From Heterotrichella gracilis (Eukaryota > Sar > Xanthophyceae > Tribonematales > Xanthonemataceae), in the NCBI GenBank assembly GCA_032358255.1, contig JAULBX010018303.1:1-64000 (forward strand): a stretch of DNA of 64,000 nucleotides, written 5' to 3'. A program made the translations under genes and the position numbers. The notes under the pieces were generated by a model. That model saw only the letters and a list, made by a program, of their open reading frames with translations. It made no database searches and was not told where the DNA came from. Below, piece after piece: positions 1,225-43,300 of this stretch. Position 1 is the stretch's first letter; the number at the start of each line of letters is the position of its first letter.

Positions 1225-4200
1225 TCAGTATTGCGGCGGGTACTGCCCCCATGTATCAGACTGCTGCTGGGCCGCCCGTGCAGGCTGTATGGGGTTGTAG
1301 GGCCGGGGGCCCCCAAGCTGGTAGCCCTGCTGGCTTGCCTGGAGGGGGTTGTAGCGCCCAGATGGTGCGCTGGTGGGGGCACGGGGCACGGGGTTGTAGG
1401 TTGGCTTGGGGGCAGGGGGGACGTAGGGCGCTGGGCGGGCGGACAGGAAGGCGGGCTTGGAGGCCTGCACAGGGTTTCAAACTGAATTACGGTTGAAAAC
1501 TACAGGCAATTTAGGGTTTAGGGTTAAGGAAGGCGGGCTGGGAGGCCTGCACAGGCTGTGTCAGGATTTAGGGTTAAGGACGGCAGGCCACTTAGGGTTC
1601 AGGGTTCAAGAAAGCGGGCTGGAAGGCCTTTGGGAGGTACGCAATGCCGATTACAGATTAATTTTAAGAGTTTAGGAAGCTACTTAGGATTTAGGGCTCA
1701 GTACGCAAGGCTCAGAGGCCTGCAATTGGTCCAACTGGTTGCTGCAACTTTCTCGTAGTGATGTGAAGGGGTTTCAGGTTGTCACGGGAGGCGTGTTCCT
1801 CCTTTCCACCGTTGCCATACTGCGCGTGCAACCAACCCGCAAGAACTGCGACAGGCTTCCGCAATGCACAACTGTGCCACCTCTACATGAAGTTCTGGGA
1901 GCCAGCTGGTCACCGCCCCACACCACTACCACACATGCAATACTACTCTTTAGTCCATCACCACCACCAGCACAGAATCACCACTATAGCCCCTAGCTCG
2001 CCCCCCCCACCTGGCCCGCCTGCTCCATTGCCTGAGTGGCGGCATGCGCAGCATGTGCCGCCTGCTGTGATGCCAACACCTCGGACTCAGTCAGGATGGT
2101 GGAGCCAGGCTGCGGTGGAGGGGGGAGTAGGGGGTGGGGGTGGTTGTTGAGGTGAAATCAAAGTAGTTGAGAGGCTGGAACAGCGTGCATGGTGGGCGCA
2201 TGTGGTGCACGTGCGGGACAAGCTCTGCAACCTAAAGCCTAAACCCTGAGCCCTAAACCCTAGACCCTGCCACCCATGGACATCGCATGCAAGACCTGAA
2301 CCCTAAACATCTGCGCGCATTGCAAACCCTGTGCACACGAGCGCTCATGCCCCCAACCCCACCCACCCCAGTGCCACTCACCCCATGCAAAACATAAACA
2401 ACAATGACGAAACAAAGTACAAAACAATTGATATATATTTCTGGTAGTTTACTCACCATAAAAGTGACCGGCGCCGTAGGTGGGTTGCTGTACAGCAGGT
2501 ACGCGTGGGCAGCAAGGCCGGGGGGGGCTGTGGCTGGGGCTGTGGTGGAGGCGCCACCCCCCACCGCTCCGTACGCCCCTGGCATGCTAGGCGCACGCGC
2601 GGAGGACACCAGGGAGGGCTGCGGCAGGGGGTGGTGGGGATTGTGTGTGTTACACGCTATGTGCCACACTACCGATGTTATATATCCGGTACATGTTTGC
2701 GATATTCAAAATTCTGATTGCAGCAAGCCGCACGCAACTCAAGACATTCCCACAAAGCAAGGTGGGCAATTACACCGTCGCAAACAGGCACAGGCACCGC
2801 CATGGCCCCAATTAGGGTTTCCGGATTAGGGTTGAAATGCCGTCGTCGACCGCACCTCAGATTGTGCCACCACGCCCTCCGCCGCAGGTAGTCCAATAGC
2901 TGCGTAGGCATACCCGGTGGTCAGCGCAGCAGGCGCCGCAGGGAGGGGCGTCCCTCGAACCAGTGGTGGTGGTGGTGGCGGGTAGACAGGCGCAGCGGCG
3001 GGTGCCGGGATTGCGGGTGGTTGGGTGACTCGGGGCATGATGGATGACAGGATGGAAGTGGGGGGGGCGGGCTTAGGCGCCATGGGAGTGTAGGCTGAAA
3101 AGGGGAACAAGGGGAGGTAAGAAGCATTGGCATGGCGTTCTTTGGGAAAGTCACATGGGGCATGCATTCCAGCAGCCAATGCATGTGCCCAGCCCCACCC
3201 ATACACAGGCACAACTCTGCACAATGTGCACAACAAGCAGCACCATGGCACATGGTTTAGGCTCGGAGACAGGAGATTGGACGCCAATTGGTTTTGAGGA
3301 TACATGACCGGAGCCAAATCATCCAACAAACGCACAGGTCCCAGACAAGAGGGTGCAAAAGCATGGCATCCATATCTGTCTGCTACGCTCGTTCCAGTAA
3401 GTAATGCGTGTGCCTGCCTGCCTATGTCGTCTATTTGATGCAGGGTTTCTAGGGGCGCACGTTTTGGTGCCTGCGGTTGCGTGGGTGCCTGCCCTTGTGC
3501 CATGGTCCTGGGCAGGAAGGCAGCAAGGCCAGGGGAGGGGCTGGGGCTGGCGCGCTGGGTGGGTGGAGGGGGAGCTGCAGAATGAACAAGTGGAGTTTGG
3601 TACTGTACAAGAAGGGTAGGGTGGTGACCAGTATATAAAGGTATAAACATGTTTACGAGAGTGTATGAGGAACAGAATTCGCACATCCTTAGAAATATGG
3701 TACGATGGGATATGTTGGGTCGTGGGTTGCGTCCCAGCCCCACTGCCATGCGGTGGCGGCATAAGGAAAGGGCGGATGCAACGCGATGCCAAGGGGGGAA
3801 ATGCAGGACAGTTCAAAGGCATCCTCGATGCAAGCCAACCCTGAGAAAGGAAGAGGTGGTTGGGCCATGCGACACAGCCATGCCACACTGCACCAAACAC
3901 GCCCAGGTGCATGGCGAGGCTGCCAGCGTATGGCTCCATGTGCGGAGAGCAATGCAACAGTCAGTATATTTCACTATAGGTAATTGAATTACTGATTGAA
4001 GTGTCGATTCAGTTGAGTCATAGTCCAGACTCTTTTTACAAAGCATCAGAAGTTCTTCAATTTTCAAAGGAAGAAAAATAATTGAAACAATGGTTTTAAA
4101 TTACCTGGCGCTACTGGCGGTGCAGGTGCTGGCGGTGCAGGTGCTGGCGGTGCAGGCTGGCGCGTGTAGCTGTCAAAACCAGCAGTGTTTGCAAACACGC

Positions 4201-7200
4201 GGTCCATGGATGCAGACCCTGCGCCAGGGTAGTTGTCAAACCCTTTGTCCCCAGCGCCAAAGCCTGCATCCCCATTTCCAGCTGCGTAGCCGCCATCATA
4301 CCCTGCATCACCAGTCCCAGTAGGTGAGAATGAGCAGCTAGATGGATAGATGGCAGTTGTGACAGTGGTAAGACAAGCGAATTGGGCAAGAGGAGTCAAG
4401 AGATAAGCGATGCCCGACTGTCCACACAAAAGTGGTAGTGCCGTGAGATGTATGTATGATGTCTTGCATAGATAATGGTGGCCAATGATGGCCTTGTGGT
4501 GTGTCGACGTGTGTGGGTGCCTTTTGTCAGGTTTTTCTTGTTCTTTCTTCATTGTAAAAAAGGGGAAAAGACGTGCCTTTGGCTAACATGCACCCTTACC
4601 ATTTCCGGCAGCGTAGCTGTCGCGCTCGTCCGCTGCACTCCCAGTAGGGTAGTCATCACCCCCCGCATCTCCATCTCCGTTATCATACCCACCATCATCC
4701 CTCTCGGGGGCTTCGAGACTCGCCTCCGGCGGGGGCCCAAACCCTGTGTCTAGGGTTTCAAACCCTGATGAAGCCCAGGGGTCGTCTGATACCTGGTTGG
4801 CACCCGAAGCGGCCCAAGGGTCAACCCTGCTAGGGTTTTGCCTAGGGCCCGAGGCGGCCCTGGGAGGGTCTCCCCTAGGGTTTGGCCTGGTGGAGTTTGC
4901 CTTGGGCTCCGGCGGGGGAGGGTTTGCCCAAGGGTCTGCGCTGCTAAGGTTTCCATTAGGGTCTGGGTTGCCCCAAGGGTCTGGGTTGGGTGCTGCGTCA
5001 CCCCATCCAGTGGTGGGGCTCTGTGTGTGCGCGGGCTGGTGGTGGGTGGTGGCGGGGGTGGGTGGCTGTGGGGTGGCGGCGGTGGGGGCGGTGGTGGTGG
5101 TGGTGGCCCATCCCGGGGATGTGTCTGTGGGGGCCAGGGTTGGGAACTGGGACTCGAGGGTGACCTGCCAGGGGGAGTCGGGGGTGAATGGGTGTGGTGG
5201 GGGACAAGGTGGGTAGAGATTGAACGCAATGGGCAGAGATACCACCACCTAGTTTTCGTTGCCTGTACTGCCCTGCCTACCCATCAAACTCCCCACCATC
5301 ACATCACCTCAACCACCGTTCACCCTCTACAATTCATAACCATTCTTGGTCTTTTACTCCACAGTGCATTCGCCTATAGCCCCCGTCCATGTCGCCACTC
5401 ACATCAACATCCATCCCATACTCCATCTCAAGCTGTGATGTAAATACTCACTAGTATAATCTTGATTAAGAAACTAACATCCACCTCCATGCCATCTTCT
5501 CCTGAAGCATTATATAAATGCTCAATATATGCATTGTATGCAACGCAATTGTACTTCATTTAACTAACAAACTCACATCCACCTCCATGCCGTACTCCTC
5601 CCTGAAGCTCTCCCTGGAAGCCTCAAGCGCGGCAATGAGCTGAAGATCCTCCTCTAGGGTAAGCGCGTCAAGGTCAGGGGAGGGGCGGGAGGGGGGGGCG
5701 GGCCTGCAAGGGGAGTAGCACAAGGTGGGTATGCTGTGACATGCAAAGGGGTTTGAGAGCATCAGGATCCCGAGGGAGGGGGATGAGTATGGTTAGTCAT
5801 TGAGGGTAAGGAGATCTGTACGGAGATCTGGTTTTTGATGGAGGGGCAAGCAGGGGGGAGGGGGAGTCCTGGATGTAAGGATGTGCGCATCCTGGTCAGT
5901 GGAGGGGAGGTGCGGGCCTGCCGGGAGGGGGAGGGGGATGCCCCTCAATTGTGCACACAGACTGCTGCTCATTTGCGACTCTGAGACATGAAATTTGAGG
6001 TACACATATATAACTCTGCCAGTCGCAATCCAGGGAACCTTTACCAAACCATCATTCACCACCACCTGACCGTACCCCCTACAACACACCCCACCGCACC
6101 CCCCACCATACCTGGCAAAGGCGCTGATGTGACCGCCACACCCACTGTACCCACCACCACCACCGCCGCCGCTACCACCATAGCCCCCACCACCACCGCC
6201 GCCGCCACCATAGCCCCCATTGCTCGCTCTGGCACCATAGCCCCCACCTCCACCGCCGCCACCACTGCCGGCTGCATAGCCCTGGGATGGGTAGGGTTGT
6301 GGGCGCTGGTAATTGCTGCTGCTGCTGGTGGTACTGGGTGCTGGCTGTGGTGCAGGTGCGGGCTCCGGCTGCAAGGGTGAAGAGGGTTTTGTGAGGACCG
6401 TCGCGACAGGATCATTAAATGCATTTCCCAATGTGATCGTCTCGTCAGGATGATAATATGCATGCCCAATGTTAACACGTGCTTATGCTGTGGTTGTGTG
6501 GTCCACTGCCATTGTTTTCTCACTACGTTTTGATGCAACAGGGCAGGGCACGGCAGGGCACGGCAGGGGCACAAACAGAACACAACTTGTGACAAAACAG
6601 GCCAAGAATTATTGGTCTCCTGTGCATGCTGCAACCACCAACCACCATCACTGCACCACCAAGCCCTTGCGCCCCCCCCCCCCAAACAAAACCCTTGCTG
6701 CTCACCTCCTTTTTCTTCTTCTTGCTCTTCCCCTTCTTCTTTGCCTCCTGTGCCTGCGGCTGCTGAGAGGCATGCGCAGAGGCCTGCTGCGCAACATGGG
6801 CGTAGTCGCGGGCAGCGGCCTCGATGGCGGCGCGCTGAGCAAGTTCCTTAGCACGCTCAGCCTGTGGGCAGAGTTCAAAGATCAGCGTTTAGGTGGGTTT
6901 GTGGTTAGGGCCTTGACCTTGTTGGGGCACCAAAACATATTATAATCCCCAGAATGTGGCACAAGGGTTTTACAGGATTTTCCATACCCTTCACAGACAT
7001 GTACTAGACCACCCACCTTGACCTGCTTCAGGTATGCCTCCTGGTCCACATGGGGTTCTCTCTCCCCAGATACAATTTGACCAGATTTGGCTCATTTTTA
7101 GAATAAAACTTCTAAAAAAAGGTTGAGGCCAAAACATTTGGCCAATTCGAGAACTGCCAGACGGCATAAGGACTACATGTAATACATCACCCACCTTGAC

Positions 7201-10200
7201 CTGCTCCAGGTATGCCTCCTGGTCCACCTGCGGCTCCTGTGCACTGGAGACCTTCTTTTCCTTCTTTTCCTTCTTGGAAACCTTGCGACCAGCGTCTGCA
7301 GGGGGGCGGTGGATGGGTGGCGGTAAGTAGAACGGGCATGCAACTCATCATCCAACTCCTTGATCCAACTAAAAAAGGAACCCTACACCCTAGACCCTAA
7401 TCCTAAATGCAACTCCCTAATCCGCCCCCCAGAGCCACCAACCCCCACACCACCCCTGGATTGTCACCCCACACTGCCACCCCATCACTCGCCACAGCAC
7501 TCAACAATTGGCTGCCCCAACATGGCCCCCCGCCCACCTTGCTGCGCCACCGCAGCCGATGGCGGCGTGCCACTTGTCGCATACTCAGCGGCCACGCTGT
7601 GCTCCCCCCACACCACACACAACTCCGCATCACTGCACCCCGCACACCCTACCTTGCTCCCCCCCCATACCGCCATAGAATGCCCCACCCCCCACCACCC
7701 ACCTTGCTGCGCCGCCGCTGCCGATGGCGGTGTGCCACTTGTCGCATACTCCGAGGCCACGCTGTGCTCCCCCCACACCACGCACTGCTGCCCATCCTCC
7801 CCTTCGTCATGCACCCCCGCCCTGGCTCGGAATGCGTACTTGGTGCCGGAGGCCAGGCCAGTCACCTGGGCCTGTATGAAGAAAAGACTTGATTTTAGTG
7901 CAATTTGCATAATAAACTTGATTTCGGTATACTTTGCATACGCATTTATTTAACATCACCAAGTCACCTGGGCCTGTACACACCACAAACACTTGGTGCC
8001 TGAAGCCAGGCCAGCCACCCGGGCCTCTATGAATATTTGATAATTTACCTACAAATGCATTATTCATAAGAACGAGTGAGAATATATTCAGCAATTCATG
8101 CTTGAAGGTGTTCCTTGAAGCTGCTTGATTTGCGTACACACTTCATTCAAATCATCAAACTCAATCATGGGAGAAGACAACTTCGAGTCTCAGAAGTTTG
8201 CAACGTTTTGTCCTTCATGCAGGTTATGGTAGAAATATACCCCATATAGTCACCCCCCGCCCCCACCTGTGCAGTGTCAAGATCCGCTGACCATGTGATC
8301 CATGTGCTCTCGCCATGTGGCCGGTAGCTCAGCTCCCAAAACACGCCAGGTGGCATCTGGAAGCAGGGGGAAGAGGTTGAGAAAAGGCAGCATTTAGCGT
8401 GTGTGTGTGGGAGGGGGGTACCATGGCAAGCAGGTGGATAGTCCAAGTAGATTCTCACGCAGGGGTGGTGTGGGGAGGGGGATGAGGTTGCAGGGGAAGA
8501 CGCGGTGCAACAGGCACCAATGAAAAGCATCCCCCACGTGAAATTTCACCTTTCCCTTTCTGGAGCAGAAAAGCTCCTGCACAAAGCGCCCAACCTTTCA
8601 CAGCACCCCCTGTTCCCCCTTATCTTCCGCGTATACGAGCAAGGAACAAGGAATAGTCCCCCCGCAGCCCCACCCCTCACCTTGCCATCCACAAACTCCC
8701 CCGCCCTGCCCTTGCGCTCTATTGACAGCGTGATGCTGCTGTCCCCCCTTGCAACCATGGTGGGGCGGGGCAGCTGCTGCACCAGGCGCTCAACGCGCTG
8801 GGCATGGGCGCGCGCAGCCCTCTCCGCGTCGCGGCGCATGGCGGCTTGGTTCTGCGGGGTGGGGGTAGAGGCAGTAAGAGGGAGACTTTTTCGCACTAGG
8901 TTTTATCTTTCTTGAGTAAATTTGGCGTAGATTGTCCCTCAGGTGCTCGCATACACCCATGCATACCCGTAACACACATACGTGGCGGCTGCGGTGGTGG
9001 TGACCTAGCCTAAGACAAATAGGTTTATATCCTTAGACCATTCTTGTCAATCAGTGTTGGGACCCTAATCGCGCATGGGATTTGCCATTCACCCTCCATG
9101 GCATACGACCTCTGTCGATTGCGAGAACCTTCCCTTCACCTTGTACACCCATAAGCACCAGCACCAGCACCACCGCCCCACCCCACCACCGCACCAACAC
9201 ATCCCGCCCCACCCACCCTTCTCTCAATCTCCTCCTGCAGCTGCCTGCGCCTCTCGCTGGCGTTCTGGCGACGTATCTCGTCCCATGCGCGGCGCTGCTC
9301 GGCCACCTGGGGGTGCGGGGGGGGACGTGGTTGGTGGGGGTGGCGGTGTGGGTGGGTGAAGGGTGCGGGAGGTGGGGGAGGGATGCATGGCGCGCAAAGG
9401 CATGGGGGTGAGGGCGGGGCAGGGCAGCGTAGGGTTTAGGTTTAGGGTTCTGGCGCAGCATCCTTGCCCACGGCGCAGCTCTGCCACTGAGAGCGGCGGA
9501 TACCAGCCCCATTGGTCAGAAGCAAAGGCAGGGTCATGTCATTGACTGGTGCAACCAACCCAAGCTTGACTCTCCCCCATTGTTCCTCCCCTCAAGATCC
9601 GGCACCATGAGATGTGCGCACAAGGCCCGGCTTAACTCATTTCTATGGCCACCTTGCGCACATAGTCTGCTCAGCAACCCAGAACCCTACACCCTGGGGC
9701 CCCACCTTGCGCACGTAGTCTGCGTCTGGGTGCCTCTGGCCCTGGTGCCCGCCATGCGCCCCTGGTGGTGCATCCCCATAGTACCCATCATCCACATCCT
9801 CGTCTTCACTCTCCCAGTCCTCGTAATACTGAAAGGTAGAGGGAGGGGTCCAAAGTCAGATGGGAGCAAGAATAATAATGATGTGCCCGCCGCGCCTCAG
9901 AGAGGTATAGTCAGATGGGACAGGATAGGGTGGGGAGGGGGAGGGGGAGGGGCAAGTGGCGGCCCCGGGGAAGCCATGGCCAAGGGGTGGATGCCTTTTA
10001 CTGTACAAAGAGTGCAACATGTGCATAGTGACGGTTGACTGGGTTGCTGGTGGAGATGTACATCAGGAGCGCATGCAAGCATACTCTGGTCTGGTGCACA
10101 TGCACTGCTGACATGCATGCATACTCTGATGCACATGCACTGGCACTGCTGACATGCCCATTAGGCTGATGCTGTTGTGCTGTAGGAATGCACCAACCCC

Positions 10201-12153
10201 GATCTGGCTGTACTGCTGCAACACAGGACATAGATACAGGGTGCATTGCTGTACCCCCACTCCAGGACACACTCCAGGGTAGATTGCTGTACCCGACCAT
10301 TACCGCCACCCCCACCCACCTCTTCTTCCTCCGACTCCCCCTCTGAGTGGAAGCACTGGCAGTTGCTGCACCACACCATGCCGCCACCACCACCCATGCC
10401 CCCACCACTCCGCCCCTGGCTGGGACCGGGACTGGGACCAAAATGGACCCCCCCGCCGCCACCAAATGAGAACCCAAATCCGAAGGGCATGCCCCCTCCG
10501 CGCCCTCCCCTCCTGCCGTTCATCATGCTACAGATGGGGCACATGGGGAAGGTCATTTCCAAGGAAGGGGGGCCAACAAAGCATGCTCAGAATGGGGGAT
10601 ATGACCACTTGCAGGGGGGGAAATCCGGCCGCTTCAAATTGCAGCAACTATGGCCTCCACGCTTGTTTCAGTGACACATATGCAACACCATGTGGCTCCG
10701 CACTGAAGAAATGCCTAGCGCCACATGGGCTGACCACGCTTGACGTTCCTCAGGGTTTTAAATGGAGTTCTAGGGAACTGACTTCGCAAACATGAATGAA
10801 TGGAGTCCATTGCCTCAGACTCTTCGTCAAAGCCCCGTTGTTTAGGGCTTAGGGTTTGGGAAGACGGGTTTAGGGTACTCACTTGGCGAACATGAACGCA
10901 AAGAAGTCTGCCGCCATCGCCTCTGCCTCCTCGTCAAAGCCCCCTTCCTCCTCCTCTGCTTCCTCGGGCTTGGTGAGGCGCATGTATGCCGCGTAGATGC
11001 TCTGGAACTTCTCGTGCGCCTCGGGGGAGGGGTTCTTGTCGGGGTGCCTGGAGCGGGGAGGGGAGGGGCGGGTTGGGGGGTGTGGGCCGGCAAGAGGGGT
11101 GAAGGGATGGAGGTGGGAGGGAAGGAGGTGGGAGAGGTGAGTGTTGGAAAATCGGTCTTCAGAGTGTTGAAGGTGCTGTAGGGTGCTATTTAGTGTGCTC
11201 TTTCTGTGTGATTCTTAGTGCCCTCCGTGGGGGGAATGGTGTCCCAAGCGTGCTTGCGGGTGTGTACACCCTATAGGGACAGTGGCCACCGGTGCTTCAC
11301 AGGCAGGTAGCAAGTATGGCGCAGTGCTGCGACCGTTGACGCTGGACCGGGTTGGCTTGCACAGTCCATAAATGCACCGTCGTGAGGAACATTGCCGGTG
11401 TGCCCCCACTCAGATCACATGGGTGGGTGCATGCAGCGGGTGCAGTGAAAGGGTAGCATGCCCAGTGGGTGCTGATACCAGGGTTGAGCACTCATATGCA
11501 ATGCATAGGTGCTTAAAGTCCACGTCAGCAATTCGTTAAGAGGTGACAGAAGGGGGTTATTTGCAAAGGATGGTGCGTCATTGGGTCTCGGTAGGGTGCC
11601 ATGGCGTGCCCATGCCGTTACACGCCAGGTATGCACTAAAACATACAACCTGTCTATTCCAGCAACACAGCGGATCGAGACGCACGATGTTTTAACGTTC
11701 GTAAGCAGTGCGAATGGCAGGTTTGAAGCCAGCGGCCACACTTCGTCGCACGTTGGCGTGTGCATGCATATCTACAAGATGGGGACATGCGGCGATGCAC
11801 GCTGCGACAGAAACCTGAGCCCACCAGCGGTTGTTTGGTTTCTAAGATACATACAGAGCAAGGCTTGGTACGGCAACTATCCCGGGACTTTTGAGGAGCA
11901 GCACGTGTAGTGTGCGTAGTGGGCAAGGAGATTGAATCTCAGATTCAAGATGCGTGCTCACCATTGCAACGCCAGCTTGCGGTACGCCGTCTTGACACTG
12001 ACCAAGTCTTCTCCATCCTACGGCAGAGACGCACGAAGCTCACGAAACAAGCAGGGAAATGGGTACTGGGCAGTAACCCCACGGCGCCATGCTTGGCTCC
12101 ACACGCACCTCCACCCCAAGGGTCTCGCACGCTTCCTCGAACGACAGCTTCAT
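1225..12153 (-). CDS. J-domain protein with FN3, UIM and DPW repeats
   Basis: Nineteen exons join in phase to 3258 nt (1085 residues): 12153-12109, 12017-11962, 11047-10883, 10527-10320, 9828-9706, 9306-9217, 8851-8681, 8356-8267, 7871-7703, 7295-7195, 6861-6706, 6368-6112, 5703-5577, 5164-4600, 4302-4105, 3574-3461, 3094-2874, 2618-2457, 1464-1225. The N terminus (MKLSFEEACETLGVE, then VKTAYRKLALQW) leads into HPDKN, the J-domain signature that stimulates Hsp70 ATPase. Next come a Gly/Arg-rich stretch with a CxxC, an acidic segment, a coiled coil, an FN3 domain (WELSYRP, GTKYAFRARA), Lys-rich helices, a Gly/Tyr-rich run, a ubiquitin-interacting motif (EEDLQLIAALEAS), four DPW tripeptides and a Pro-rich tail. 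DPW motifs bind clathrin adaptors in other proteins, so a role in chaperoning ubiquitylated or endocytic cargo is an inference. The last exons are low complexity and less certain; the exon 16 and 17 donors are the weakest calls. Confidence 0.8.
1444..1725 (-). repeat. Acceptor/exon-start copies between TTTAGGG arrays
   Basis: The last exon of the J-domain gene begins at 1464 after a TGCAG acceptor. The acceptor plus exon start recurs upstream in the intron at about 1528-1554, and in more decayed form near 1577-1590, 1611-1630 and 1706-1725. TTTAGGG-type runs separate the copies (about 1504-1525, 1565-1580, 1591-1612, 1684-1697). This is the only acceptor-side example in the window. Confidence 0.75.
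2230..2300. repeat. Degenerate CCCTAAA array in intron 18
   Basis: Imperfect CCCTAAA/CCTAAAC units lie in the last intron of the J-domain gene. No duplicated exon edge was found next to this run. Confidence 0.6.
5393..5612 (-). repeat. Three copies of the UIM exon 3' edge
   Basis: The UIM exon ends at 5577 with codons for GMEVD followed by a GTGAGT donor. Diverged copies of its last ~35 bases plus the donor lie downstream in the intron at about 5478-5512 and 5393-5432, each keeping a GT at the splice position. No clear telomere-like array separates them, unlike most other cases here. Confidence 0.7.
7015..7236 (-). repeat. Exon 10 3'-edge duplication
   Basis: The end of exon 10 (codons for VDQEAYLEQVK, exon end 7195, donor GTGGGT) recurs about 180 bases further into the intron at about 7015-7055, again followed by GTGGGT. 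The copy differs by a few substitutions. The two copies are separated by unremarkable sequence, not by a telomere-like array. Confidence 0.75.
7530..8035 (-). repeat. Fragmentary copies of the FN3 exon
   Basis: The functional FN3 exon is 7871-7703. Its 3' half, including the donor, recurs nearly unchanged at about 7530-7635 (codons for VVWGEHSVAAEYATSG and on), still open and still followed by a GT. Its 5' edge and acceptor recur in the upstream intron at about 7965-8035. The downstream copy is the best-preserved duplicate in the window and may be recent. Confidence 0.8.
9648..9724 (-). repeat. Exon 5 3' edge duplicated across a telomere-like run
   Basis: The exon 5 end and donor (functional copy 9700-9724) recurs at 9648-9672. 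Between them lies a short GGGT/CCCTA-type run (about 9676-9697). The copy keeps GTGG at the donor position. Confidence 0.7.
10768..10944 (-). repeat. J-domain exon 3' edge duplicated across a TTTAGGG run
   Basis: Exon 3 ends at 10883 with an acidic segment and FAFMFAK. A decayed ~70-base copy of that end lies at about 10768-10836, still recognisable from the GFDEE codons to the donor, with GTCAGT in place of GTGAGT. A TTTAGGG-type run (about 10842-10876) separates the copies. Confidence 0.75.
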
Positions 12154-12797: not shown

Positions 12798-14344
12798 ATG
12801 CATGCATTCTTGCCCCTGCTGCTGTGCCTCGTCAGCCTGCTACCGCCGCCCACCGCCGCCCACAACCTGTGCAAGGGCCTCCGCTTAGCCACCACCGCCG
12901 CCAACGAGGCGCGCAGCCTCGCGCACGACATCCCAGGCACACAGGGACCCCTTTCCTGCCTCATCCCACTGGCCTGCCCCATCGTTAACACCACCCGCTT
13001 CCCCTCCACGTGGTTCCACCAGCGCCTGGCGCTGGTCCCCTCCAAAACCACCCCCTCCTTCCTGGTATCCACGCACGTGCGGGGCTTTGACGGCGTGCGG
13101 TGGACGGTGTTTGAGCGGGGGACATGGTGGACGGAGGACTTCACGAATGTAGTCAAGCGGGCGCTGGGCAGTGGCCAGCAATCGGGGCTGGTGGTGGACG
13201 TGGGCGCAAACATAGGCTGGGTGTCGCTCTACGCCGCCGCGCTGGGCCACTCGGTGGTCAGCTTTGAGCCCAACCCGGCCAACCAGCAGCGCCTGTGCGA
13301 GGCCATTGTGGCCAATGGGATGTACGGGCAGATCACCCTGGAACCCAAGGCGGTGGCGGACACCTCGGCGCGGGTGCAGCTGGAGTGGAACCGGGAGCGG
13401 TATGGGGAGCGGCTCACCACCGACTCACGCCAAACCGGCAACGCGTTTGTGCTGCAACCAGTCCAAATGGTCACCTTAGACGGCCACTTTAAGGATAAGT
13501 TGAAAGACGTGCTGCTGCTGCACATCGATGTGGATGGGTGGGAGGCCCAGGTCATTCACGGAGCGCAGCACCTGTTGGCTACCTGTACGGTGCACTATGT
13601 GTACATGGATGCGGCGTTCCAGGATGAGGAGGCGATCAAGCAGCTGCTAGAGTCCCTGCAGTGGCTCAAGGGGAATGGGTATACCCTATTGAAGTTGGAC
13701 CCTGTGTTGGACCCGCACCAGGTAAGGGACGAGGCTAGACCCTAGACCTAACCCTAAACCTTAAACCCTATAGACTGAACCCTAACTCTGATTGAAGCTG
13801 AACCCGCACCAGGTAGGGGGAGGAGCTTGCATCCTAAACCCTAAACACCAACGAATATACCCTAAAGCCTAACAGGTAGGGATACGGTGGGCCAGAGGGT
13901 AATGTGTATGGGGCTTAATGGACGCCCTTGTTGAAGATTGTCCAGTGACCATAGTGGGCTGGAAGGGGACGCCCTCCTTGTGCACACTCCTCTTCCGCAA
14001 CCAATGCGCCTGTTCGGGATAGGCTGCATGGATTAAACACCATGGATTTGATGGTGTTCATCCTCTATACATAACTCATATACGTTCTACTTATTTTGTG
14101 TATATTGTTGAATTTCAGTCATGTATCTATGTGAAAACAATATCCTTATGTTATTGTTTTCTGTGGTTGCCAGGTGACGCCCTACCACTCGCGCATGGTC
14201 AAGGCGCCTGTCAAGGCGTTCATGAAGGACGGGGAGGTGGGCCAGATGGTCAAGTTCTGTCGGGACACGGTGCGCTCGGGGCACTGCAGGCTGCTGTGGG
14301 GGGCGCAACAACATGAGCAGAAATGTGGGGGTGGGGTGACATGA
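12798..14344 (+). CDS. Secreted FkbM-family methyltransferase
   Basis: Two exons, 12798-13721 and 14174-14344, give 364 residues. The first ~21 residues (MHAFLPLLLCLVSLLPPP and on) form a signal peptide. The SAM-binding motif is VVDVGANIGWVSLYAA (about residues 131-146), followed by SFEPNP, and LLHIDVDGWEAQVIHGA matches the FkbM-family motif near the end of the fold. Family members O-methylate sugars or small molecules; substrate cannot be read from sequence. The signal peptide points to the secretory pathway, perhaps methylating cell-wall glycans (inference). I chose ATG 12798 because it starts the hydrophobic leader directly; the frame upstream has no other ATG. The second exon gives a short tail (VTPYHSRMVKAPVKAF and on). 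Confidence 0.88.
13703..13875 (+). repeat. FkbM exon 1 edge duplicated across a CCCTAAA array
   Basis: The exon 1 end and donor (ACCCGCACCAG/GTAAGGG at 13711-13728) recurs at about 13802-13821 as ACCCGCACCAG/GTAGGGG. A CCCTAAA-type array (about 13736-13793) lies between, and a second run follows the copy (about 13832-13870). The copy keeps an intact GT. Confidence 0.85.
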
Positions 14345-27975: not shown

Positions 27976-28900
27976 GTTCACAGCTCAGCTATGCAGTCTT
28001 GCCGAGAGTCTCGAGCTTATTTTTTAAAATTACTTATTGAATGACCTTCAAAGTCATTCAGAGTTTATTGAGTTTATTTTTTTAAAAATTACTTATTGAA
28101 TGNNNNNNNNNNNNNNNNNNNNNNNNNNNNNNNNNNNNNNNNNNNNNNNNNNNNNNNNNNNNNNNNNNNNNNNNNNNNNNNNNNNNNNNNNNNNNNNNNN
28201 NNAATTACTTATTGAATGACCTTCAAAGTCATTCAGAGTTTATTGAGTTTATTTTTTTAAAAATTACTTATTGAATGACTTTCAAAGTCATTCAATAAGT
28301 AATGTAAAAAAATAAACTCAACCTAGGTACTCGTACATTTGACCAGTCAGCTTGATGAGCCAATTGGGCCCTGCACTGCCAGTGCACAGTGTAGAACTAT
28401 CACAGTGCCGCAACTCCAAAAACATATTCAGGAGCAATCCAATCAATGATGACATGGTCAAGATTCCAGCGCAGTATTGTCGTAGGAGTATTACAGTATT
28501 TTTGAAAATCATTCAGTATTGGTCATGAAAATTATCGCACATATAAAGCATGTCAACCACGTTTTTCAAACATGGCAAGGTTTTTTTAAATGAGCTGCAA
28601 CATGTGCATGGCAGCACATAGATCATAGCAGCTAGCCCAGCTAGGTTGCACCTAGTGCACAGGGTAATTTCTGCGTATTTTGGACATTCCCCAAGTCTCA
28701 GGGCGCGATTTGAATACAGGCTTAAAAAACAGGCTTGGCCCCTATGGTAAGCCAGCTCATGTAGATAACAATTCAAACACAATATGTTTGGGAACACCAC
28801 CCATAGGATGTCACAGATGTATTCATCATCATCATGTGCATCATATTTCAGAAGTTATGTCAAAGGCCCTGCGTGGTAGTTGCCATTACCCGCCGCCAGT
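27976..28900. repeat. AT-rich palindromic tandem repeat around a scaffold gap
   Basis: A ~70-base AT-rich unit (ATTACTTATTGAATGACYTT, CAAAGTCATTCA, then GTTTATTGAGTTTATTTTTT) repeats on both sides of the gap, from about 28018 to 28318. The last unit is followed by its own reverse complement, so the array can fold into long hairpins. The rest, to 28900, holds no gene I can recognise. Confidence 0.8.
28103..28202. other. Assembly gap of 100 N
   Basis: Exactly 100 Ns, a conventional unknown-size gap. It falls inside the AT-rich tandem repeat, so the true array length is unknown. Confidence 1.
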
Positions 28901-30775
28901 CTATTTTGGCACGCTGTATATGACTGTCAGTCTTGGCCGCTTGCCAGTCTTCTTAGTGGCTGTGCTCCAAACCGCTGCGTTCCCGGAGGTGGCGGCCTGT
29001 GGAGAGCGGAGCTTGTGTATGCTGGGATGTGTGTTGTATGGGCGGGATTCCTTGGATGCAGGCATGGACTGCAACTTGAGCAAATCTGTGACGATCCGGC
29101 ATGGTGTCACTACGATCTGATGAAGTGGAAGGACCCAGCGTGTAATTTGCAGCGCGCATGCAATATTGGCATACATTGTGGCAATCACTGCAGATGTTGG
29201 TAGTGTTGTCTTGCAGTCGTCCTTGGATTTGATATAGAACACAGTGAGCCATTTATAGTGAATGCGTGGTATGGCACTGTGTACACACTGGCATGCACAT
29301 CACATACCAGAAATGCGCAGATGACTAACAGGGGCTCAGCAATGCACGCCCTTGCAATAGTTTCCACATGCACGACCAAACCCTTCAACCCCAATCTAAT
29401 TTCCCCAGCTACCACAGCCCACCCACCTTGAGCAGAATCCCAAATTGCGTGCCAGGGTTCTTCACCCACCCCTGCACCACTGAGGCCGACAGTGGCACTT
29501 GGTAGGACTGGTCACCCGAACCCGGAAGGCCCTTGATGGAGATCTTGGGTGCATTGGATCGGCAGGCAGACAGACCCCCTCGCTTGTCCTTGGCAGGTGT
29601 GGAGGGCCACTCCACTGGCTTGCCTGTCTTGGGGTCTGACCACTGGTAGCGCCAGCCTGAAGGTGGGGCGCAGGGGTCAGGGTGTTAACTGACCGCCACT
29701 GAGTACACTGTACAGGCTGTACATTACATGCGTGCCCCCGGGGTGGGATGCATCCACGTGGTACCGACAGTACTTAAACGGCAGGCGTTCCTGCTTAACA
29801 TAATACGCTGCCAGGTGCCAGTCCCAATAACACCTCTGGCAGTAAGGTGCCCCTCATTGGGTACACCACCATGGTTGTTCCTGTAAAGGGTCACAATAGG
29901 ATAGCTGTGATGCAGGCCATTAAAGTGGGCAATCTGGCTGTTTCATTTGGGCGCAACTGGTTGCCGCCCCTCACCTGTCGACTCATACTCCTTCACCTGA
30001 CGGGCATTCCAGTCCTTGCCCAGGTAGCATCCACTGATGCCCATGCCAGCCACCCAATTGGTCAACCCTAGGGTGAGGTTGGCCCCTACAATGGTGGCCT
30101 TGGAGGGGATGAAGCTTTCCATCCCCTTGAACCGCAGCAGGGTGCGGAAGGTTGTGTCGGTACCCTTGGTTAGGGTTTGCTCCTGGAGCGAGAAGGTGCC
30201 GGGGTTGCTGCTGGCCCAGTAGGTGGCACCGTTGAAGTTGTTCCAGTCGGCGATGTACTGGTTGGTGATGCCTGTCGCAAAGACATGGGGGCGGTGCGGG
30301 ATAGGGTCAACGCCACAGCCTTGCATTGCAGTGGTCTTTTCAGTGCTGTGCAACACAGTGAGGCGGAAGTGCTTGTTAGGTACAGTGAAATCGAGTAGTG
30401 GTAATGGGGACACACTGCTAGCTGGATGTGCATTTGTGGCTCTCCAGTTAGTCCCACCAGGTGCACCCTAAACCCTAACCCTTTCTCAGAAACCCTAACC
30501 GTGAAGTGCAGTGCACCTTTGTCTGCGCTGCCCGTGGAGGTGGTGGTCGAAACCCAAAACCCCAAACCCCAAACCCTAAACCCTAAACCCTACACAGTAC
30601 CTATGTCTGCGCTGCCCTTGTAGGTGGTGGTCTTGCCCTTGAGGTCACGCAGCTGAGCACCGGCAACAAAGGTGATGGTGTGGAGCACAGGCTGCGCGCC
30701 CAGGGCTGCGGGGGAGCAGGCAGCAGCCACCAGCAGCGCCAGCACCAGGCGAGGGAAGGTGCGTGCGACTGACAT
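28901..30775 (-). CDS. Secreted DNRLRE-like domain protein
   Basis: Four exons (30775-30601, 30271-29975, 29656-29427, 28996-28901) join in phase to 266 codons. Residues 1-26 (MSVARTFPRLVLALLVAAAC and on) are a signal peptide. The body follows the DNRLRE pattern: TLLRFKGMESFIPSKATIVG and NLTLGLTNWVAGMG, then YLGKDWN, then SVVQGWVKNPGTQFGILLK, and the terminal strand RPRLTVIYSVPK. DNRLRE-type modules are beta-sandwich domains of extracellular and cell-wall proteins. No catalytic motif is seen. A structural or adhesive role in the cell wall or matrix is inference. The ATG at 30775 begins the leader directly. Confidence 0.82.
30464..30640 (-). repeat. DNRLRE exon 1 edge duplicated across a TTTAGGG array
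   Basis: The exon 1 end and donor (exon end 30601, codons for TTYKGSADI) recurs downstream at about 30507-30549. A CCCTAAA array (about 30550-30593) separates the copies and a second array (about 30468-30500) follows the extra copy, so the unit is exon edge plus array, twice. The copy keeps GTGCAC at the donor. Confidence 0.85.
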
Positions 30776-33688: not shown

Positions 33689-35891
33689 CTATATCTCATC
33701 ATCGCTGCCAAACAAATCCTCGTCGAGTGGCGGGAAATCACCCACCTGCACCGCCCCCGCCCGCACAAACCCTCCAAACCCCTCCACGCACTCAAAGTAC
33801 CGCTTCCCCTTGATGTTGCCATCGTTCTTTCCCACAGGCTCGTCGTATTGCACCCCCACCCACACACCTGCCGGCAAGCCCTCACATGGTCCAACAAATC
33901 TGCAGGTACAAGGGCGCGCATATAAGTCGGGGAGTGCGCACATGCAAATGATACTGCTCTGCAGGTAAGGGAGGCGCATATTGTTCAGGGCGCGCACACA
34001 TGCGCAGCGCGCTGCACAGCAGGTACAAGACAGGCGCACATGCAACTCCTCATAACTTATGAGTCATAAGGCAACGCCACATAGGGTCCACATTAGTTTG
34101 GAACGCATGCCGTTGCATACCAGTGTTGCAGGGGTACACCAAGCTAACAGCAGACTTACTTGACTTCGCCCCTCTTTGCGCCGGGGTCCACCTCACACCT
34201 GCAGCCAACCACGATGCCCGCTGCCGCCACGTCATCAACATCAGGCGGGGCATTGTGGGTTGAAGCGGATGGGGATGGAGGCTGCTGCTGCTGAATCTCT
34301 TGCAGGAACCTAGGCATGGAGCGGGGCAAGCAAACGTGAATCACGGCATGTGAAGTGCCAGCAAACTTGAGTCACAGCATTTGATCACCAAATTTGATCA
34401 CCCAATGTTGATGTCCCAGCAATATGGTGGACCATGAATTGATTGTATGTGACGGCCATATGGTGGACCTCACATTCGTTTGTTATGACAGCATGGTCTT
34501 CATGCTGTGGTTTGTGGCTTTCAACACCACATGCACATGGGCCAGTGCAACATGCAGCCACCTGCCAAGCAAATGTACCACACGACCACTGTAGAAACCC
34601 TTCTCCAACCCCTTTGCACCCCACTCCACCCTGCTGTTGCACCCTTGGTCCAGATTCCAGGGTTTAGGGTTTACTTACTACCTCATGGTGTTGTCCGCTT
34701 GTCATACTCCTGTTGCACACTTGGTTCAGGGTTCAGGCTTTAGGGTTTAGGGTTAAGATATTCGGGTTCACTCACTTCCTCATCGTGTTGTCCCGCTTGT
34801 CATACTGCTCCTCTGGCATCACGTACTTGTCAACCTTTGACACGTCGTCCAGCCAGCCGCCAGCTGTCACCGAGGCGGGGTCGGTGTCAATCACGTGGAG
34901 CACACACCTGCGGCAATCGATCATTAATATCTAAAATAAGAAGAAGAAATAAATGATACATAGTTAATATCTTACTAAATCCGAATAGAAAATTTCAGAT
35001 ACGACCCTTTGTAACCCAACTGGTATGGCGCCACATATGAACATCTCCCAGAACCCTAGGCAAGCCCCTTAGCTACTACCCTTGCCATGAAGTCAACCCC
35101 ACCCTGCCCTATGTCCACACCCACAGGATACAGCCTGCAAGGATGGTGCGCCACATACCCATCGTAAGGTGAGTAGTACCCCAGCGGCCGGGTGTCGTTG
35201 TCCAGCTCAGCCAGCAGCGCCCCCCCCTGGTCAAGGAGCTGCAGCCGCTGGGAGGAAGCTGCGCTGCCTGTGTGGGACTGGAGCTTGCGCTTGACGCCAT
35301 CCACACTCATCTGCGGGCGGTGCAAGGGGCGTAAGGGTGCGGGGGTGCAGGGAGCACCAGGTGTGGCAGTGCAAGGGGCGTAAGGTGTGGGGGTGCAAGG
35401 GGCGTAAGGCATGGCGGTGCAAGGGGGGCCAGGTGTCGCACAGTGTGAGATGGCGGCAGAGCGTGACTTGCGGCGTGCGGACATTGGGAGGGAGTACTGG
35501 TGACTGCCTATTGTGTCATCAGCTTTGGGGAAAAGGGATGGCATCGGGGACAGATGGCAGGCAAGGACAATAGTGTGAGTGAGCATGATGATGAACGACT
35601 AGTGTTGGACTGGTTACCATAGGTACCCATACAAAGGGTGTCCATGCTTTCTGTGGAGCCCACCAGTGTGGCTGCAGTAGGACATATGGAGGTAGCACCT
35701 TGGATATGAAGACTACAAGTGCAATTGCAATGTATCCTTGCGGGAATACTACAAGGCCGAGTTCAGGGTTGCGTGTGGGTGCGCACATGCAGGTCGAGTC
35801 GAATCTCTGCAAACCCATGGCGCAGGTTGCTGTGGGTGATCTGCAGCCGCACTGCGCCGCCAGAGGGCAGCTGCTGGTCCACAGAACGCAT
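33689..35891 (-). CDS. TBCB: Tubulin-folding cofactor B
   Basis: Five exons (35891-35787, 35310-35159, 34907-34776, 34309-34160, 33899-33689) give 249 residues, close to the usual ~240. The N-terminal ubiquitin-like domain has LQITHSNLRHGFAEIRLDLH, then VKRKLQSHTG and LGYYSPYDG. It is followed by CVLHVIDTDP, DVSKVDKYVMPEEQYDKRDN and a linker. The C-terminal CAP-Gly domain has GLPAGVWVGVQYDEPVGKND, the GKNDG microtubule-binding loop and RYFEC. It ends in DDEI, the terminal motif known for the family. TBCB binds alpha-tubulin after the CCT chaperonin and works with cofactor E; in an alga it would serve cytoplasmic microtubules and flagella. The start follows the family's usual distance to the ITHSN motif. 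Confidence 0.95.
34651..34815 (-). repeat. TBCB exon 3 edge plus TTTAGGG run, tandem duplicated
   Basis: The functional exon 3 end and donor (34766-34811) recurs at about 34671-34712, with GTAAGT in place of GTGAGT. Each copy has its own TTTAGGG run (34735-34755 and 34660-34672), itself next to a shared CTTGGTYCAG word. The whole ~95-base unit, exon edge plus array, is therefore tandemly duplicated. Confidence 0.85.
35328..35440. repeat. GC-rich minisatellite in TBCB intron 1
   Basis: A ~27-base unit (GTGCAAGGGGCGTAAGG plus a variable GTGTGGGG-type part) repeats about four times imperfectly just upstream of TBCB exon 2. Confidence 0.75.
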
Positions 35892-40360: not shown

Positions 40361-43300
40361 CTATGCCTTGCTGCTCTTCTTTGCGCTACATGTCCCCCTG
40401 TGCTTGGGCCAGTGCGCCTCCTGGCACAGCTTGCCGCAGTACCTGGTCTGGCCACACCTGTGGAGGCAGGGGCCATGGTGTCATGGGCATGACATCAACT
40501 CCGCAGAAGAGTAAAACAACAGATAGCATGCGTGCATCCCGCTCCGTAGCCTGTAGATGCTTGCTGGCGTTGTGCACATGCATGCAAGCATCGATCAAGA
40601 ACTCTGGTGTCATTGTAACCACTCCTTTGACAAGTAAGGTTGCATGCCTGACTGGACCACACCTGCATGCGCGCAGCTTCTCCCCTTCAGCTGGCACCAG
40701 CCCACACATGCGGCACCCCTTGAGCCTGCTCCTGAACGCCTCCCCCTCTTCATCATCATCACACGCATCCCGCACCTCTGGCGCAGGCTTGCCCACGCGC
40801 TCAATGAACACATACACGCGGGCGCAGCCAGGGCGCTTGGCATGCGCGTCATCATCCGCAGCGTACGCCAGCACCGGTTCAAACCTGTCATTGACCACCT
40901 GCTGCACCAGCACTGCGGCGTCCATGGCGACTCGCATGGGGTGCTGCGAGCTGCCGCTCTGCTTGGATGCCAGGATGGGTGGGTGCATGACCACGTTTGC
41001 AGGGCAGTCCTTGGGCTGCAGGGAGCGGAACACTACGCAGCAGTGGTTGGCTGGTACAGAGGGCATGACCTTGCGCTCCACCTGCATGGGCAAAAGCAGC
41101 TGTCATACAATCCAAGCGCCTGTTAACCCTAGGCAAGGGTGTACTGTCAGGCTGGGACGACGTGCTGCTGCAATTGCAGGCATGGGTTGCAACTCTCTAA
41201 CCTGTTTATTGCTCTGTATAATTGAACAGTATTGGCACCATCCACGACTACCACACCAGCGGAGAGACGTCAAAGAAAGGGTGCCTGTTATATATGGCCT
41301 GCGTGTACTTGCATGTAGTCCATTGTATACACCACTAATGACGAGTCGTGGGCTTCAGGGTTTTCAGCGTATGCAGCTGCACATGCAATGGCAAAGATGC
41401 CCAACAGTACCGTTGCTGCACACTATCGCTTCTATGCACAACAGAAGCGGGCCGCCTGCCATGAGATGAATGTAGGGTTTTTGAATGCGCCATGAAAGGG
41501 TCTGGTAAAAGGAGGGCTGGCGCTGCATACCGCTGCCTTGCTGTTCTGCGCTCACGCAGCCGCAGCTCCTCCACAAGGCAAAGGCTAACCCCCAAACCCT
41601 TAACCCTAAACTCTGAACCCTAAACCCTTGATCCTAACCCTAAACACCCCGTACCGCTGCCTTGCTGTTCCTGCGCTCTTGCAGCCTTAGCTCCTCAAGC
41701 TTCACCACCAGCCCAAGCACAGCCTGCGGCGTGTTGCTGCTATCCACCCGCACCAGCACGCCCACCCGCTCCCCCCGCTCCCCCTCAAGGAAGGACACAA
41801 TGCCGCCAGGGACATCAGACAGGCCATCGCGGCGCAGCTCCTCTGGTGTGGCCGGCCGCACGCTGTTTGGTCCTGCTACAATGCCTTGGTCCACGGAGGA
41901 GGCACCTGTGTCAACATAAAAGACTGTGCCTTCGGTCGTCACCCCAGGTAGGAGCTCAGCCCCTACTCCAAGGTTTGGGAGCACTGTGTGCATCAGACGC
42001 GCCTGCAAGCACCAAGAACGGCCTGGCTCAGCATTACCAGCACCCGCTACTGCTAGGAAGCACGAACGTGGCCATGTGTAGATTTCAAACCCTGGGGTGC
42101 TCAATACCAGCAATCAAACATGTTCCTTGTCTTCATTGGCAGCATCATGCACACTGCTGTGTTGCACACTTGGAGCAGCGAGTATGCTGCACGAATCCAA
42201 TTCCCTTCAATCAAGGTGATGTAAATGCTAAGGCCGGGTACAACGTCCCCATGTAGGTGCAGCAAACAATGCCAACCCTGTTAGCTAGTGCGCATGGCAT
42301 TGGTATGCAAAAATGTCGTGCGGGAATGGTGCCCATTATCTGCCCATTACTCAATGGTGGATGGAAACGCTCCCCACCCTGCGCTTCCATGACCAACCCC
42401 TTGGAATACAGAGAACTGACGCTATCCCCATCCTTACCTTGTCGGCGTACTCGCTTGAGACCCGCACTGCCCCAGCTGGTCGGTCCATGCAAACACTACC
42501 CCTGGGAAGACCAGCATCCACAACCAGCTGAAGCCGCCAGTTGCGCTTGCCTGGAAGGACACGCAGGGCTGGGTGAGGGGCTATGTTCACAAAATGCACT
42601 CATTTTCTTTGCTTTGGTTTAGTTTCATTCCCACCTACCAAACTTCCGCCCCCGCATTATTGCAGCAACAGATGGGCTATCCATCACTCAGATCCGCTGG
42701 CTCAACAGTCTGGGTACTTCTGATACCACACCTTGGTGCATCACCAAGCACGTGCAATCTGCACCAATGTCCATCCCTTACCTGTCGCTGCGCAGCCCAG
42801 CAGCGTCATCTGCTCCCAGAAGTTCCCAACATGCGTGCTGGAGGTCCACTCGGTGGTGGATTGTTGCAGCAGGTACCTGCGGGGCAGCAGGCTGGCAAGT
42901 CACATGGTGCGCGCTGCTTGCCAATCAGGCTGCACTCGGTTTAGGGTTTAGGGTTTAGGGTTGACCAGCGGGACAATAGGCTGGACACTCACAAGGCGTG
43001 CGGCTTGTGAAGGAGGCTGCGTTGGGTTCTATGTCAAAATTGCTTGCATAATTCCAATTTAACTGAGGCTGGTCCCACCAATGATACTGCAGACCATGCT
43101 CCTTACGTATGTAAAGAGGTAGGATGGGGGTACATCCAAGGTACGCATGCAAAAAAGCAACAGAGATCCTTATCTAACAAGTACTAACAGTAAATTGATC
43201 GCAGTGCAGACCAAAATATGGACTTGCGGGATGAGGCTGGGATTGCAAACACTTGCCATACAACCTGCCATACAACGGACAAATATAGACGAGCAGGACA

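What the first reader, a model, noticed from the sequence alone, without database searches (positions are those of the whole stretch)
1444..41703. Exon edges with splice sites repeatedly duplicated around telomere-like arrays
In five unrelated genes on both strands, the last or first 20-75 bases of an exon plus its splice site occur twice, with a TTTAGGG/CCCTAAA array between. Donor-side cases: 9.7, 10.9, 13.7, 17.3, 30.6, 34.8 and 41.6 kb, plus 16.5 kb with a weak array. Acceptor-side: 1.46-1.73 kb. At 13.8, 30.5 and 34.7 kb each copy has its own array, so the repeated unit is exon edge plus array. Every donor-side copy keeps GT at the splice point although its coding part has decayed. Array orientation relative to the gene varies. 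This does not fit ordinary transposition, and the arrays are far from a chromosome end. A working model is telomeric-repeat insertion or telomerase-like repair at breaks near splice sites coupled to short tandem duplication, enlarging introns and giving duplicate splice sites.
Basis: partly seen in the sequence, partly recalled or inferred. Interest (0 to 1): 0.8.

Follow-up and report, generated by a model that had tools for sequence, protein, structure and literature searches.

The report
Telomere repeats at duplicated exon edges
In this green alga, short runs of the chromosome-end repeat often sit right beside exon-intron borders, in many cases between two copies of the border itself, which suggests that introns grow through sloppy repair of DNA breaks next to splice sites.

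Summary
TTTAGGGTTTAGGG occurs 5,629 times, reversed control 5. In 264 kb (window plus C2:1-200000), with splice sites from a self-trained gene finder, 49 of 60 strong arrays lie in predicted introns and 0 in exons; 12 of the 49 start within 10 nt of the donor, 1.5 expected. A second sample gave 7 of 27, 1.6 expected. Motif counts needing no gene model agree: donor then array 330 and 436, array then donor 79 and 90. Exon-end copies lie in the adjoining intron at 34 of 253 donors and 22 of 253 acceptors; swapped controls 0.0 and 0.2. Near acceptors 14 of 15 arrays read CCCTAAA on the sense strand; near donors orientation is even.

Weaker points: old donor copies keep GT in only 24 of 31; half of donor-side and three quarters of acceptor-side fillers are not detectably telomeric; splice sites are predicted. 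Best reading: staggered breaks at exon edges, filled in to duplicate the splice site and often joined through telomeric repeats. Telomerase's role is inferred.

The parts
1445..1629 (-). acceptor-side case: repeated copies of the first ~20 nt of exon 1225-1464 with its acceptor, arrays at 1510-1529, 1563-1579, 1592-1606
   Evidence: copies 1445-1525 and 1527-1606
9649..9723 (-). donor-side pair: exon edge + GTGG (9702-9723), 31-nt weak telomere-like filler (9671-9701), decayed copy (9649-9670)
10771..10946 (-). donor-side pair around array 10840-10876; real exon 10883-11047 (partial DnaJ match), decayed copy 10771-10839
13708..13880 (+). FkbM-methyltransferase exon edge, donors at 13722, 13813 and 13876, arrays 13735-13785 and 13833-13872
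16412..16556 (+). donor-side pair (16412-16456 and 16512-16556), donors 16452 and 16552, weak array 16459-16474, lipoyl-ligase gene
17310..17430 (+). donors 17329 and 17416 either side of array 17347-17405; short, individually weak duplication
   Evidence: not listed at p<=0.02
30465..30632 (-). donor-side pair (30599-30632 real, 30515-30548 decayed), arrays 30550-30595 and 30465-30498
34631..34809 (-). donor-side pair (34761-34809 real, 34664-34711 decayed), arrays 34723-34768 and 34659-34673, in the gene model with a ubiquitin-like domain
41528..41696 (-). donor-side pair (41652-41696 real, 41528-41571 decayed) around array 41585-41649
5467..5608 (-). donor-side exon-edge duplication with a non-telomeric (A+T-rich) filler
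6997..7236 (-). donor-side exon-edge duplication (62 bp, 89%) with a non-telomeric 116-nt filler
7838..8033 (-). acceptor-side exon-edge duplication with a non-telomeric filler

Best explanation
Breaks strike exon DNA near its borders with nicks on opposite strands. One nick lies a few bases inside the intron, the other 20-100 bases inside the exon. Filling in the overhangs gives both ends the same exon edge with its splice site. The ends are then joined through filler, most recognisably a run of TTTAGGG/CCCTAAA put there by telomerase or captured telomeric DNA. The result is [exon edge + splice site][filler][exon edge + splice site]. The copy next to the intact exon is spliced, so filler and old copy become intron and decay; the intron has grown by about 100 nt and the new edge can be hit again. 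At acceptors mainly arrays reading CCCTAAA on the sense strand survive, probably because they supply branch-point-like and pyrimidine-rich sequence, whereas TTTAGGG would supply extra AGs. Shown here: duplications, fillers, position bias, orientation bias, repeated units, decay of one copy. Inferred: staggered breaks, fill-in, telomerase or telomeric capture, tolerance through splicing, and the reason for the acceptor bias.
For: Position: 12 of 49 intronic arrays <10 nt from the donor (1.5 expected); in a second sample 10 of 27 <15 nt from the donor and 6 of 27 <15 nt from the acceptor, 2.2 expected for each. The predicted donor is unchanged in 94 of 100 trials (20 donors, 5 replicates) when arrays are replaced by random intron sequence. 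Other tandem repeats show a weaker but real bias: 8 of 76 <10 nt from the donor, 3.2 expected, p 0.0095. Genome-wide motif order 330 vs 79 and 436 vs 90. Duplication: 34/253 donor-side and 22/253 acceptor-side edge copies, swapped control 0.0 and 0.2; 38 of 98 strong arrays in window, C2 and 20 stretches flanked by a copy (no control of its own; control). Duplicated segment: median 36.5 nt exon + 12 nt intron at donors, 12.5 intron + 47.5 exon at acceptors. Fresh example L048: identical 56-bp copies, 46 bp up to the donor and 10 bp beyond, around a 41-nt filler holding two perfect units. Repetition: L039 has three [array + AG + exon start] units. Arrays favour introns over unannotated DNA, 0.51 vs 0.11 per kb. 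Acceptor orientation 14 of 15; genome-wide CCCTAAA-then-TGCAGG 237 vs TTTAGGG-then-TGCAGG 97. Telomerase gene present.
Against: Half or more of the fillers are not telomere-like. The telomeric share does not rise clearly with copy identity: donor-side 2/6, 7/14, 7/12, acceptor-side 0/6, 3/7, 2/7. Array purity per base does not fall with distance from the splice site (Spearman 0.008); array score does (-0.30, p 0.0016), but scores near splice sites and in the interior do not differ clearly (p 0.10), so the order of successive additions is not established. In the first set alone the acceptor-side position bias is modest (8 of 49 <25 nt, 3.6 expected, p 0.03). In L048 the gene finder reads the insert itself as a 52-nt intron with the second copy translated, so that case may be an intron gain. 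The acceptor orientation bias was first noticed by eye in the same data, and no opposite-order count was run for TGCAGG. Splice sites are predicted; no RNA evidence. No empty sister-species site was available, so one-step insertion is not shown. In-register priming at the array ends, a telomerase mark, was not tested.
Confidence: 0.6

Rival explanations
1. Insertion with flanking duplication is random across genes. Exonic events die, and the exon-edge cases are simply the ones we can still recognise because the exon copy is held by selection.
For: No strong array in exons (0 of 60; 1 of 38 in set 2, in an exon predicted near a locus edge). Exon-edge copies are easier to detect than intron-intron ones. 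GT retention fits plain decay.
Against: Array positions were scored without using the duplication, yet pile up within 10 nt of donors (19 of 76 vs 3.0 expected) and in motif order genome-wide; random insertion plus loss from exons predicts a flat profile. Among 16 filtered pairs with >=86% identity only 1 is intron-intron, although predicted introns (95 kb) outweigh exons (67 kb); the number is small.
Confidence: 0.15
2. Ordinary tandem duplication (slippage or template switching) of exon edges comes first; telomere-like heptamers later expand in the spacer like a microsatellite.
For: Edge duplications without arrays are common. Other tandem repeats also show a mild donor bias. Units with their own arrays are tandemly repeated (L054, L039, C2 122 kb).
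Against: Only one heptamer stands out: AAACCCT dimers 29 against 2 for the next. The identical L048 copies already carry an array. The donor bias of arrays (8-fold) is about three times that of other repeats (2.5-fold).
Confidence: 0.12
3. A mobile element or introner family with telomere-like sequence inserts at splice junctions and makes long target-site duplications.
For: Thousands of similar inserts; of those sampled, 38 of 98 have flanking direct repeats.
Against: Duplications of about 20-100 bp vary case by case, and by eye the fillers share only the heptamer (no systematic search for a shared core). The introner paper reports 3-9 bp duplications (PMC9860276, passages). In the donor cases printed the intron usually runs on beyond the copy.
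Confidence: 0.05
4. The arrays are kept because they help splicing: CCCTAAA as branch-point and pyrimidine-rich tract at acceptors, G-runs at donors.
For: Strong CCCTAAA-sense bias near acceptors (14 of 15; 237 vs 97 genome-wide).
Against: No orientation bias at donors (13 vs 14), so a G-run role there is unlikely; selection does not explain the duplicated exon edges.
Confidence: 0.08

Closest known systems
Short interstitial telomeric sequences inserted at double-strand breaks (mammals; PMC7215372, passages read)
   Same: Telomeric repeats at internal sites, absent from exons, sometimes with direct duplication of the target attributed to staggered breaks.
   Different: There duplication alone was seen at 3 of 66 horse loci and the human intronic share (31%) fits random insertion; here 38 of 98 arrays have a detectable duplication and arrays crowd splice junctions.
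Plant telo boxes and the transcription-linked telomerase model (Gaspin et al. 2010, PMC3022908, passages and first part of the Discussion)
   Same: TTTAGGG motifs scattered in genes; telomerase acting at transcription-linked free 3' ends was proposed.
   Different: Those are single motifs enriched in 5' UTRs and 5' flanks; no exon-edge duplication or splice-site adjacency appeared in the parts read.
Daphnia neointrons from staggered breaks (PMC4202315, passages read)
   Same: Direct repeats from staggered breaks; repeated break repair is proposed to lengthen introns.
   Different: There new introns arise, with 4-12 bp exon repeats; here existing introns seem to be lengthened, repeats are about 20-100 bp, and the filler is often telomeric.
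Intron gain by tandem genomic duplication of AGGT (review PMC3443670, passages read)
   Same: Tandem duplication of an exon segment carrying a splice-site sequence.
   Different: Here the duplicated GT is an existing donor and the intron usually continues beyond the second copy.
Direct repeats near splice sites (Rogers and Bendich 2025, PMC11782384, abstract and section list only)
   Same: Direct repeats near intron/exon borders.
   Different: 4-30 bp repeats in 213 introns of many taxa; the abstract mentions no telomeric filler.
Introners (PMC9860276, passages read)
   Same: Many independent insertions tied to splice sites.
   Different: Family-specific sequence, short target duplications, new introns.

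Membership tests
Break-repair interstitial telomeric sequence (ITS) | telomeric repeats at internal chromosomal sites | tested here: met
   5,629 exact 14-mers, reversed control 5; spread over many contigs. That TTTAGGG is this alga's own telomere repeat was not checked at chromosome ends.
Break-repair interstitial telomeric sequence (ITS) | break-site modification such as target duplication | tested here: met
   38 of 98 arrays; control
Break-repair interstitial telomeric sequence (ITS) | one-step insertion shown against an empty orthologous site | not testable with these tools
   no relatives held for this genome
Break-repair interstitial telomeric sequence (ITS) | bases at the break in register with the repeat (telomerase priming) | not tested
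   boundaries judged too uncertain; only a few junctions looked at by eye
Introner / transposon-made intron | short (3-9 bp) target-site duplication | tested here: not met
   the duplications found are about 20-100 bp; arrays without a detected copy could hide shorter ones
Introner / transposon-made intron | insert is itself a new intron | tested here: inconclusive
   intron usually runs on beyond the second copy; in L048 the gene finder makes the insert a 52-nt intron
Introner / transposon-made intron | terminal inverted repeats | not tested
   not searched
Daphnia-type staggered-break neointron | short (4-12 bp) direct repeat of adjacent exon bases at the opposite end of a new intron | tested here: inconclusive
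   the search found longer copies on the side of their own exon but could not detect 4-12 bp repeats; whether introns are new is not testable
Tandem genomic duplication intron gain | duplicated exonic AGGT serving as donor and acceptor of a new intron | tested here: inconclusive
   duplicated splice sites present, but the second copy is usually followed by intron
Plant telo box | single AAACCCTA motif enriched in promoters and 5' UTRs | not tested
   no transcript starts available; arrays here are mainly intronic (49 of 60)

The most novel reading that the evidence does not exclude
This lineage has a dedicated, still active intron-growth process. Breaks fall at the ends of exon-length structures (for example mRNA-DNA hybrids or exon nucleosomes), telomerase adds repeats to either broken end, and fill-in duplicates the splice site, so introns lengthen ring by ring from both ends and telomeric DNA is recruited as new 3' splice-site sequence.
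Probability: 0.2. Interest if true: 0.85.

Novelty: new variant of a known kind. Interest (0 to 1): 0.68.

Why it matters
How introns lengthen is an open question, and here the growth steps can be read in one genome because conserved exons preserve one copy. Extrapolating 227 strong arrays per Mb gives roughly 15,000 arrays; the larger part of the sample, C2, is poorer in perfect 14-mers than the genome (30 against 82 per Mb), so this is not inflated by it. 48 of 253 predicted introns (19%) carry an exon-edge copy. If breaks really favour exon-intron junctions, this links transcription or splicing, DNA breakage and telomeric repeat addition, and could be tested in an alga in the laboratory. 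The acceptor orientation bias suggests that telomeric repeats become working splice-site sequence.

Tried and rejected
Gene-finder artefact (exons ending because arrays carry stops): tested by replacing arrays (94 of 100 trials unchanged) and by motif counts without any gene model; rejected as the sole cause. A first gene-finder run degenerated into tiny exons and was discarded; the second is the one used. It misses some genes, for example those at 13-18 kb of the window, so arrays counted as 'other' include genic ones.

Growth rings read from array purity: purity per base against distance gave no trend; not claimed. Selection on GT in old copies: 24 of 31 kept, against about 22 expected from 85% identity (own arithmetic); rejected. 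An earlier count of 17 of 32 copies with a net length difference not divisible by three included intron bases; for the exon part alone it is 12 of 32. Naming the organism: the eukaryotic SSU rRNA search failed twice on the machine side. A CP26-like antenna protein matches PDB chains best; that those entries come from Dunaliella, Chlamydomonas and Chlorella is recalled, not in the output, so only 'green alga' is claimed, supported also by 43 chlorophyll a/b-binding matches.

Literature: nine searches of the open library. Searches, on telomeric repeats with introns and splice sites or intron gain, listed no paper. No listed title or abstract start described exon-edge duplication around telomeric arrays; listings were capped and subscription journals are not held.

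Set 2 (20 stretches) covers the listed places on C3, C4 and C5 and was chosen for arrays, so it is used for position only, not density; one listed C3 place at the contig end was left out. L001-L008 and L010-L016 were not used in any count of their own (L001-L006 lie almost wholly inside the C2 tiles).


Full report
What is there. The window is contig C184:1-64000 of an unnamed 68.5 Mb genome in 903 contigs. It has 43 matches to chlorophyll a/b-binding proteins and two exons matching the telomerase RNA-binding domain: a green alga with a telomerase gene. TTTAGGGTTTAGGG occurs 2,845 + 2,784 times, against 2 + 3 for the reversed pattern. The three-unit form occurs 406 + 428 times against 0, on many contigs of the part listed. 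In the 264 kb held as window plus C2:1-200000, AAACCCT is by far the commonest tandem heptamer: 29 dimers, next best 2.

Direct reading and self-alignment confirm the duplicated exon edges at 9.7, 10.9, 13.7, 16.5, 30.6, 34.8, 41.6 and 1.45-1.63 kb. The 17.3 kb case has both donors, but its duplication is short and was not among those at p<=0.02. Against 3,000 random positions per sequence, 25 of 60 strong arrays have a flanking duplication at p<=0.05, where 3 are expected. The control has a heavy tail: tandem duplications without arrays also exist, and only 10 of 104 arrays of any strength reach p<=0.01. Of spacers between local duplications, 3 of 8 (window) and 12 of 33 (C2) hold at least two telomere hexamers, against 6.5% and 14% of random intervals.

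Gene models. Because no annotation is held, I trained a small gene finder on the 264 kb. It gave 35 genes and 253 introns with donor NAG|GTRNG, acceptor TGCAG|G and a median intron of 329 nt, starting from a general consensus. Pfam matches (7 of 18 ORFs tried) support coding sequence beside several sites.

Arrays crowd splice sites. Of 60 strong arrays, 49 fall in predicted introns, 0 in exons and 11 elsewhere; per kb that is 0.51, 0 and 0.11. Of the 49, 12 start within 10 nt of the donor (1.5 expected if placed evenly within their own introns, none of 2,000 shuffles as high) and 8 end within 25 nt of the acceptor (3.6 expected, p 0.03). A second sample of 20 stretches on three other contigs, taken in listing order around arrays, gave 7 of 27 within 10 nt of the donor (1.6 expected) and 5 of 27 within 10 nt of the acceptor (1.5 expected). 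Replacing the arrays by random intron sequence left the donor call unchanged in 94 of 100 trials (20 donors, five replicates). Other tandem repeats show a smaller bias, 8 of 76 within 10 nt against 3.2, p 0.0095. Without any gene model, the donor motif AGGTRNG followed within 15 nt by an array occurs 330 (CCCTAAA) and 436 (TTTAGGG) times in the genome; the opposite order occurs 79 and 90 times. Matches in tandem units are not independent, and AGGTAGG can also be a decayed TTTAGGG unit, which affects both orders of the TTTAGGG count.

Exon edges are duplicated. The last 120 nt of the upstream exon find a copy in their own intron (score >=32) in 34 of 253 introns, with 0.0 expected from swapped introns; for acceptors it is 22 of 253 against 0.2. 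With free alignment 32 donor-spanning and 20 acceptor-spanning pairs remain, in 48 introns. The duplicated segment is mostly exon: median 36.5 nt exon and 12 nt intron at donors, 47.5 and 12.5 at acceptors; decay of the intron part may exaggerate this. Across window, C2 and the 20 stretches, 38 of 98 strong arrays are flanked by a copy. The clearest young case is L048: two identical 56-bp copies, 46 bp up to the donor plus 10 bp, around a 41-nt filler with two perfect units; the gene finder reads the insert there as a 52-nt intron, so it may also be an intron gain. Some loci carry three successive units (L039, L047, L054), and some genome-wide motif hits repeat at about 80-112 bp spacing.

Fate of the copies. 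The copy farther from the exon looks like a relic. Exon-part identity runs from 72 to 94%, GT survives in 24 of 31, 12 of 32 have a frame-changing length difference in the exon part, and the proximal donor scores higher in 21 of 32 with 5 the other way; 18 distal copies still have a usable donor score.

Fillers. Half of donor-side fillers (16 of 32) and a quarter of acceptor-side ones (5 of 20) are telomere-like against length-matched intron pieces. Some of the rest may be decayed arrays, but the telomeric share does not rise clearly with copy identity, so a non-telomeric route must be allowed.

Orientation. Within 25 nt of donors 13 arrays read TTTAGGG and 14 CCCTAAA on the sense strand. Near acceptors (<30 nt, donor farther) 14 of 15 read CCCTAAA; in the interior it is 15 to 19. 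The bias holds in both sets (8 of 9 and 6 of 6) and at cut-offs from 15 to 50 nt. It was first noticed by eye in these data; the whole-genome counts are the separate check: CCCTAAA before TGCAGG 237, TTTAGGG before TGCAGG 97. That CCCTAAA supplies branch-point-like and pyrimidine-rich sequence, whereas TTTAGGG adds AGs ahead of the acceptor, is inference.

Mechanism. The pattern fits staggered breaks with one end near the exon-intron junction, fill-in of the overhangs, and joining through telomeric or other filler. Either broken end could be extended, which would give both orientations at donors. Because the duplicate carries its splice site, the whole insert can be removed with the intron. 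Random insertion with loss from exons does not by itself explain why arrays lie so close to junctions. What concentrates the breaks (R-loops, nucleosome edges, transcription) is unknown, and telomerase itself is inferred.

Compared with known cases. Mammalian interstitial telomeric sequences were concluded to enter at double-strand breaks, but with duplication alone at 3 of 66 horse loci and a human intronic share fitting random insertion (PMC7215372, passages). Plant telo boxes carry a published transcription-linked telomerase model (PMC3022908). Daphnia neointrons show staggered-break repeats of 4-12 bp (PMC4202315, passages). The combination found here, telomeric filler with long exon-edge duplication and splice-site targeting across a genome, was not in the listings of my nine searches. 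I file it as a new variant of break-repair telomeric insertion.

Noticed in passing
   Followed up: yes
window 35316-35426: Minisatellite of 24/48-bp units beside predicted exon 35159-35310.
   Followed up: no
window 28028-28294: A perfect 75-bp direct repeat with further related copies, outside predicted genes.
   Followed up: no
G000 C195:75480-75671, C23:72995-73248, C325:44954-45140: Splice motif plus array repeated three times at 80-112 bp spacing, possible tandem amplification of the whole unit.
   Followed up: no
L035 1100-1700 (C2:181100-181700): One intron carries both a donor-side and an acceptor-side edge duplication; by eye the old acceptor copy has no AG at the matching place.
   Followed up: partly
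G000 C626:23723-24513 (L057, L058): Telomerase reverse transcriptase gene, RNA-binding domain split over two exons.
   Followed up: no
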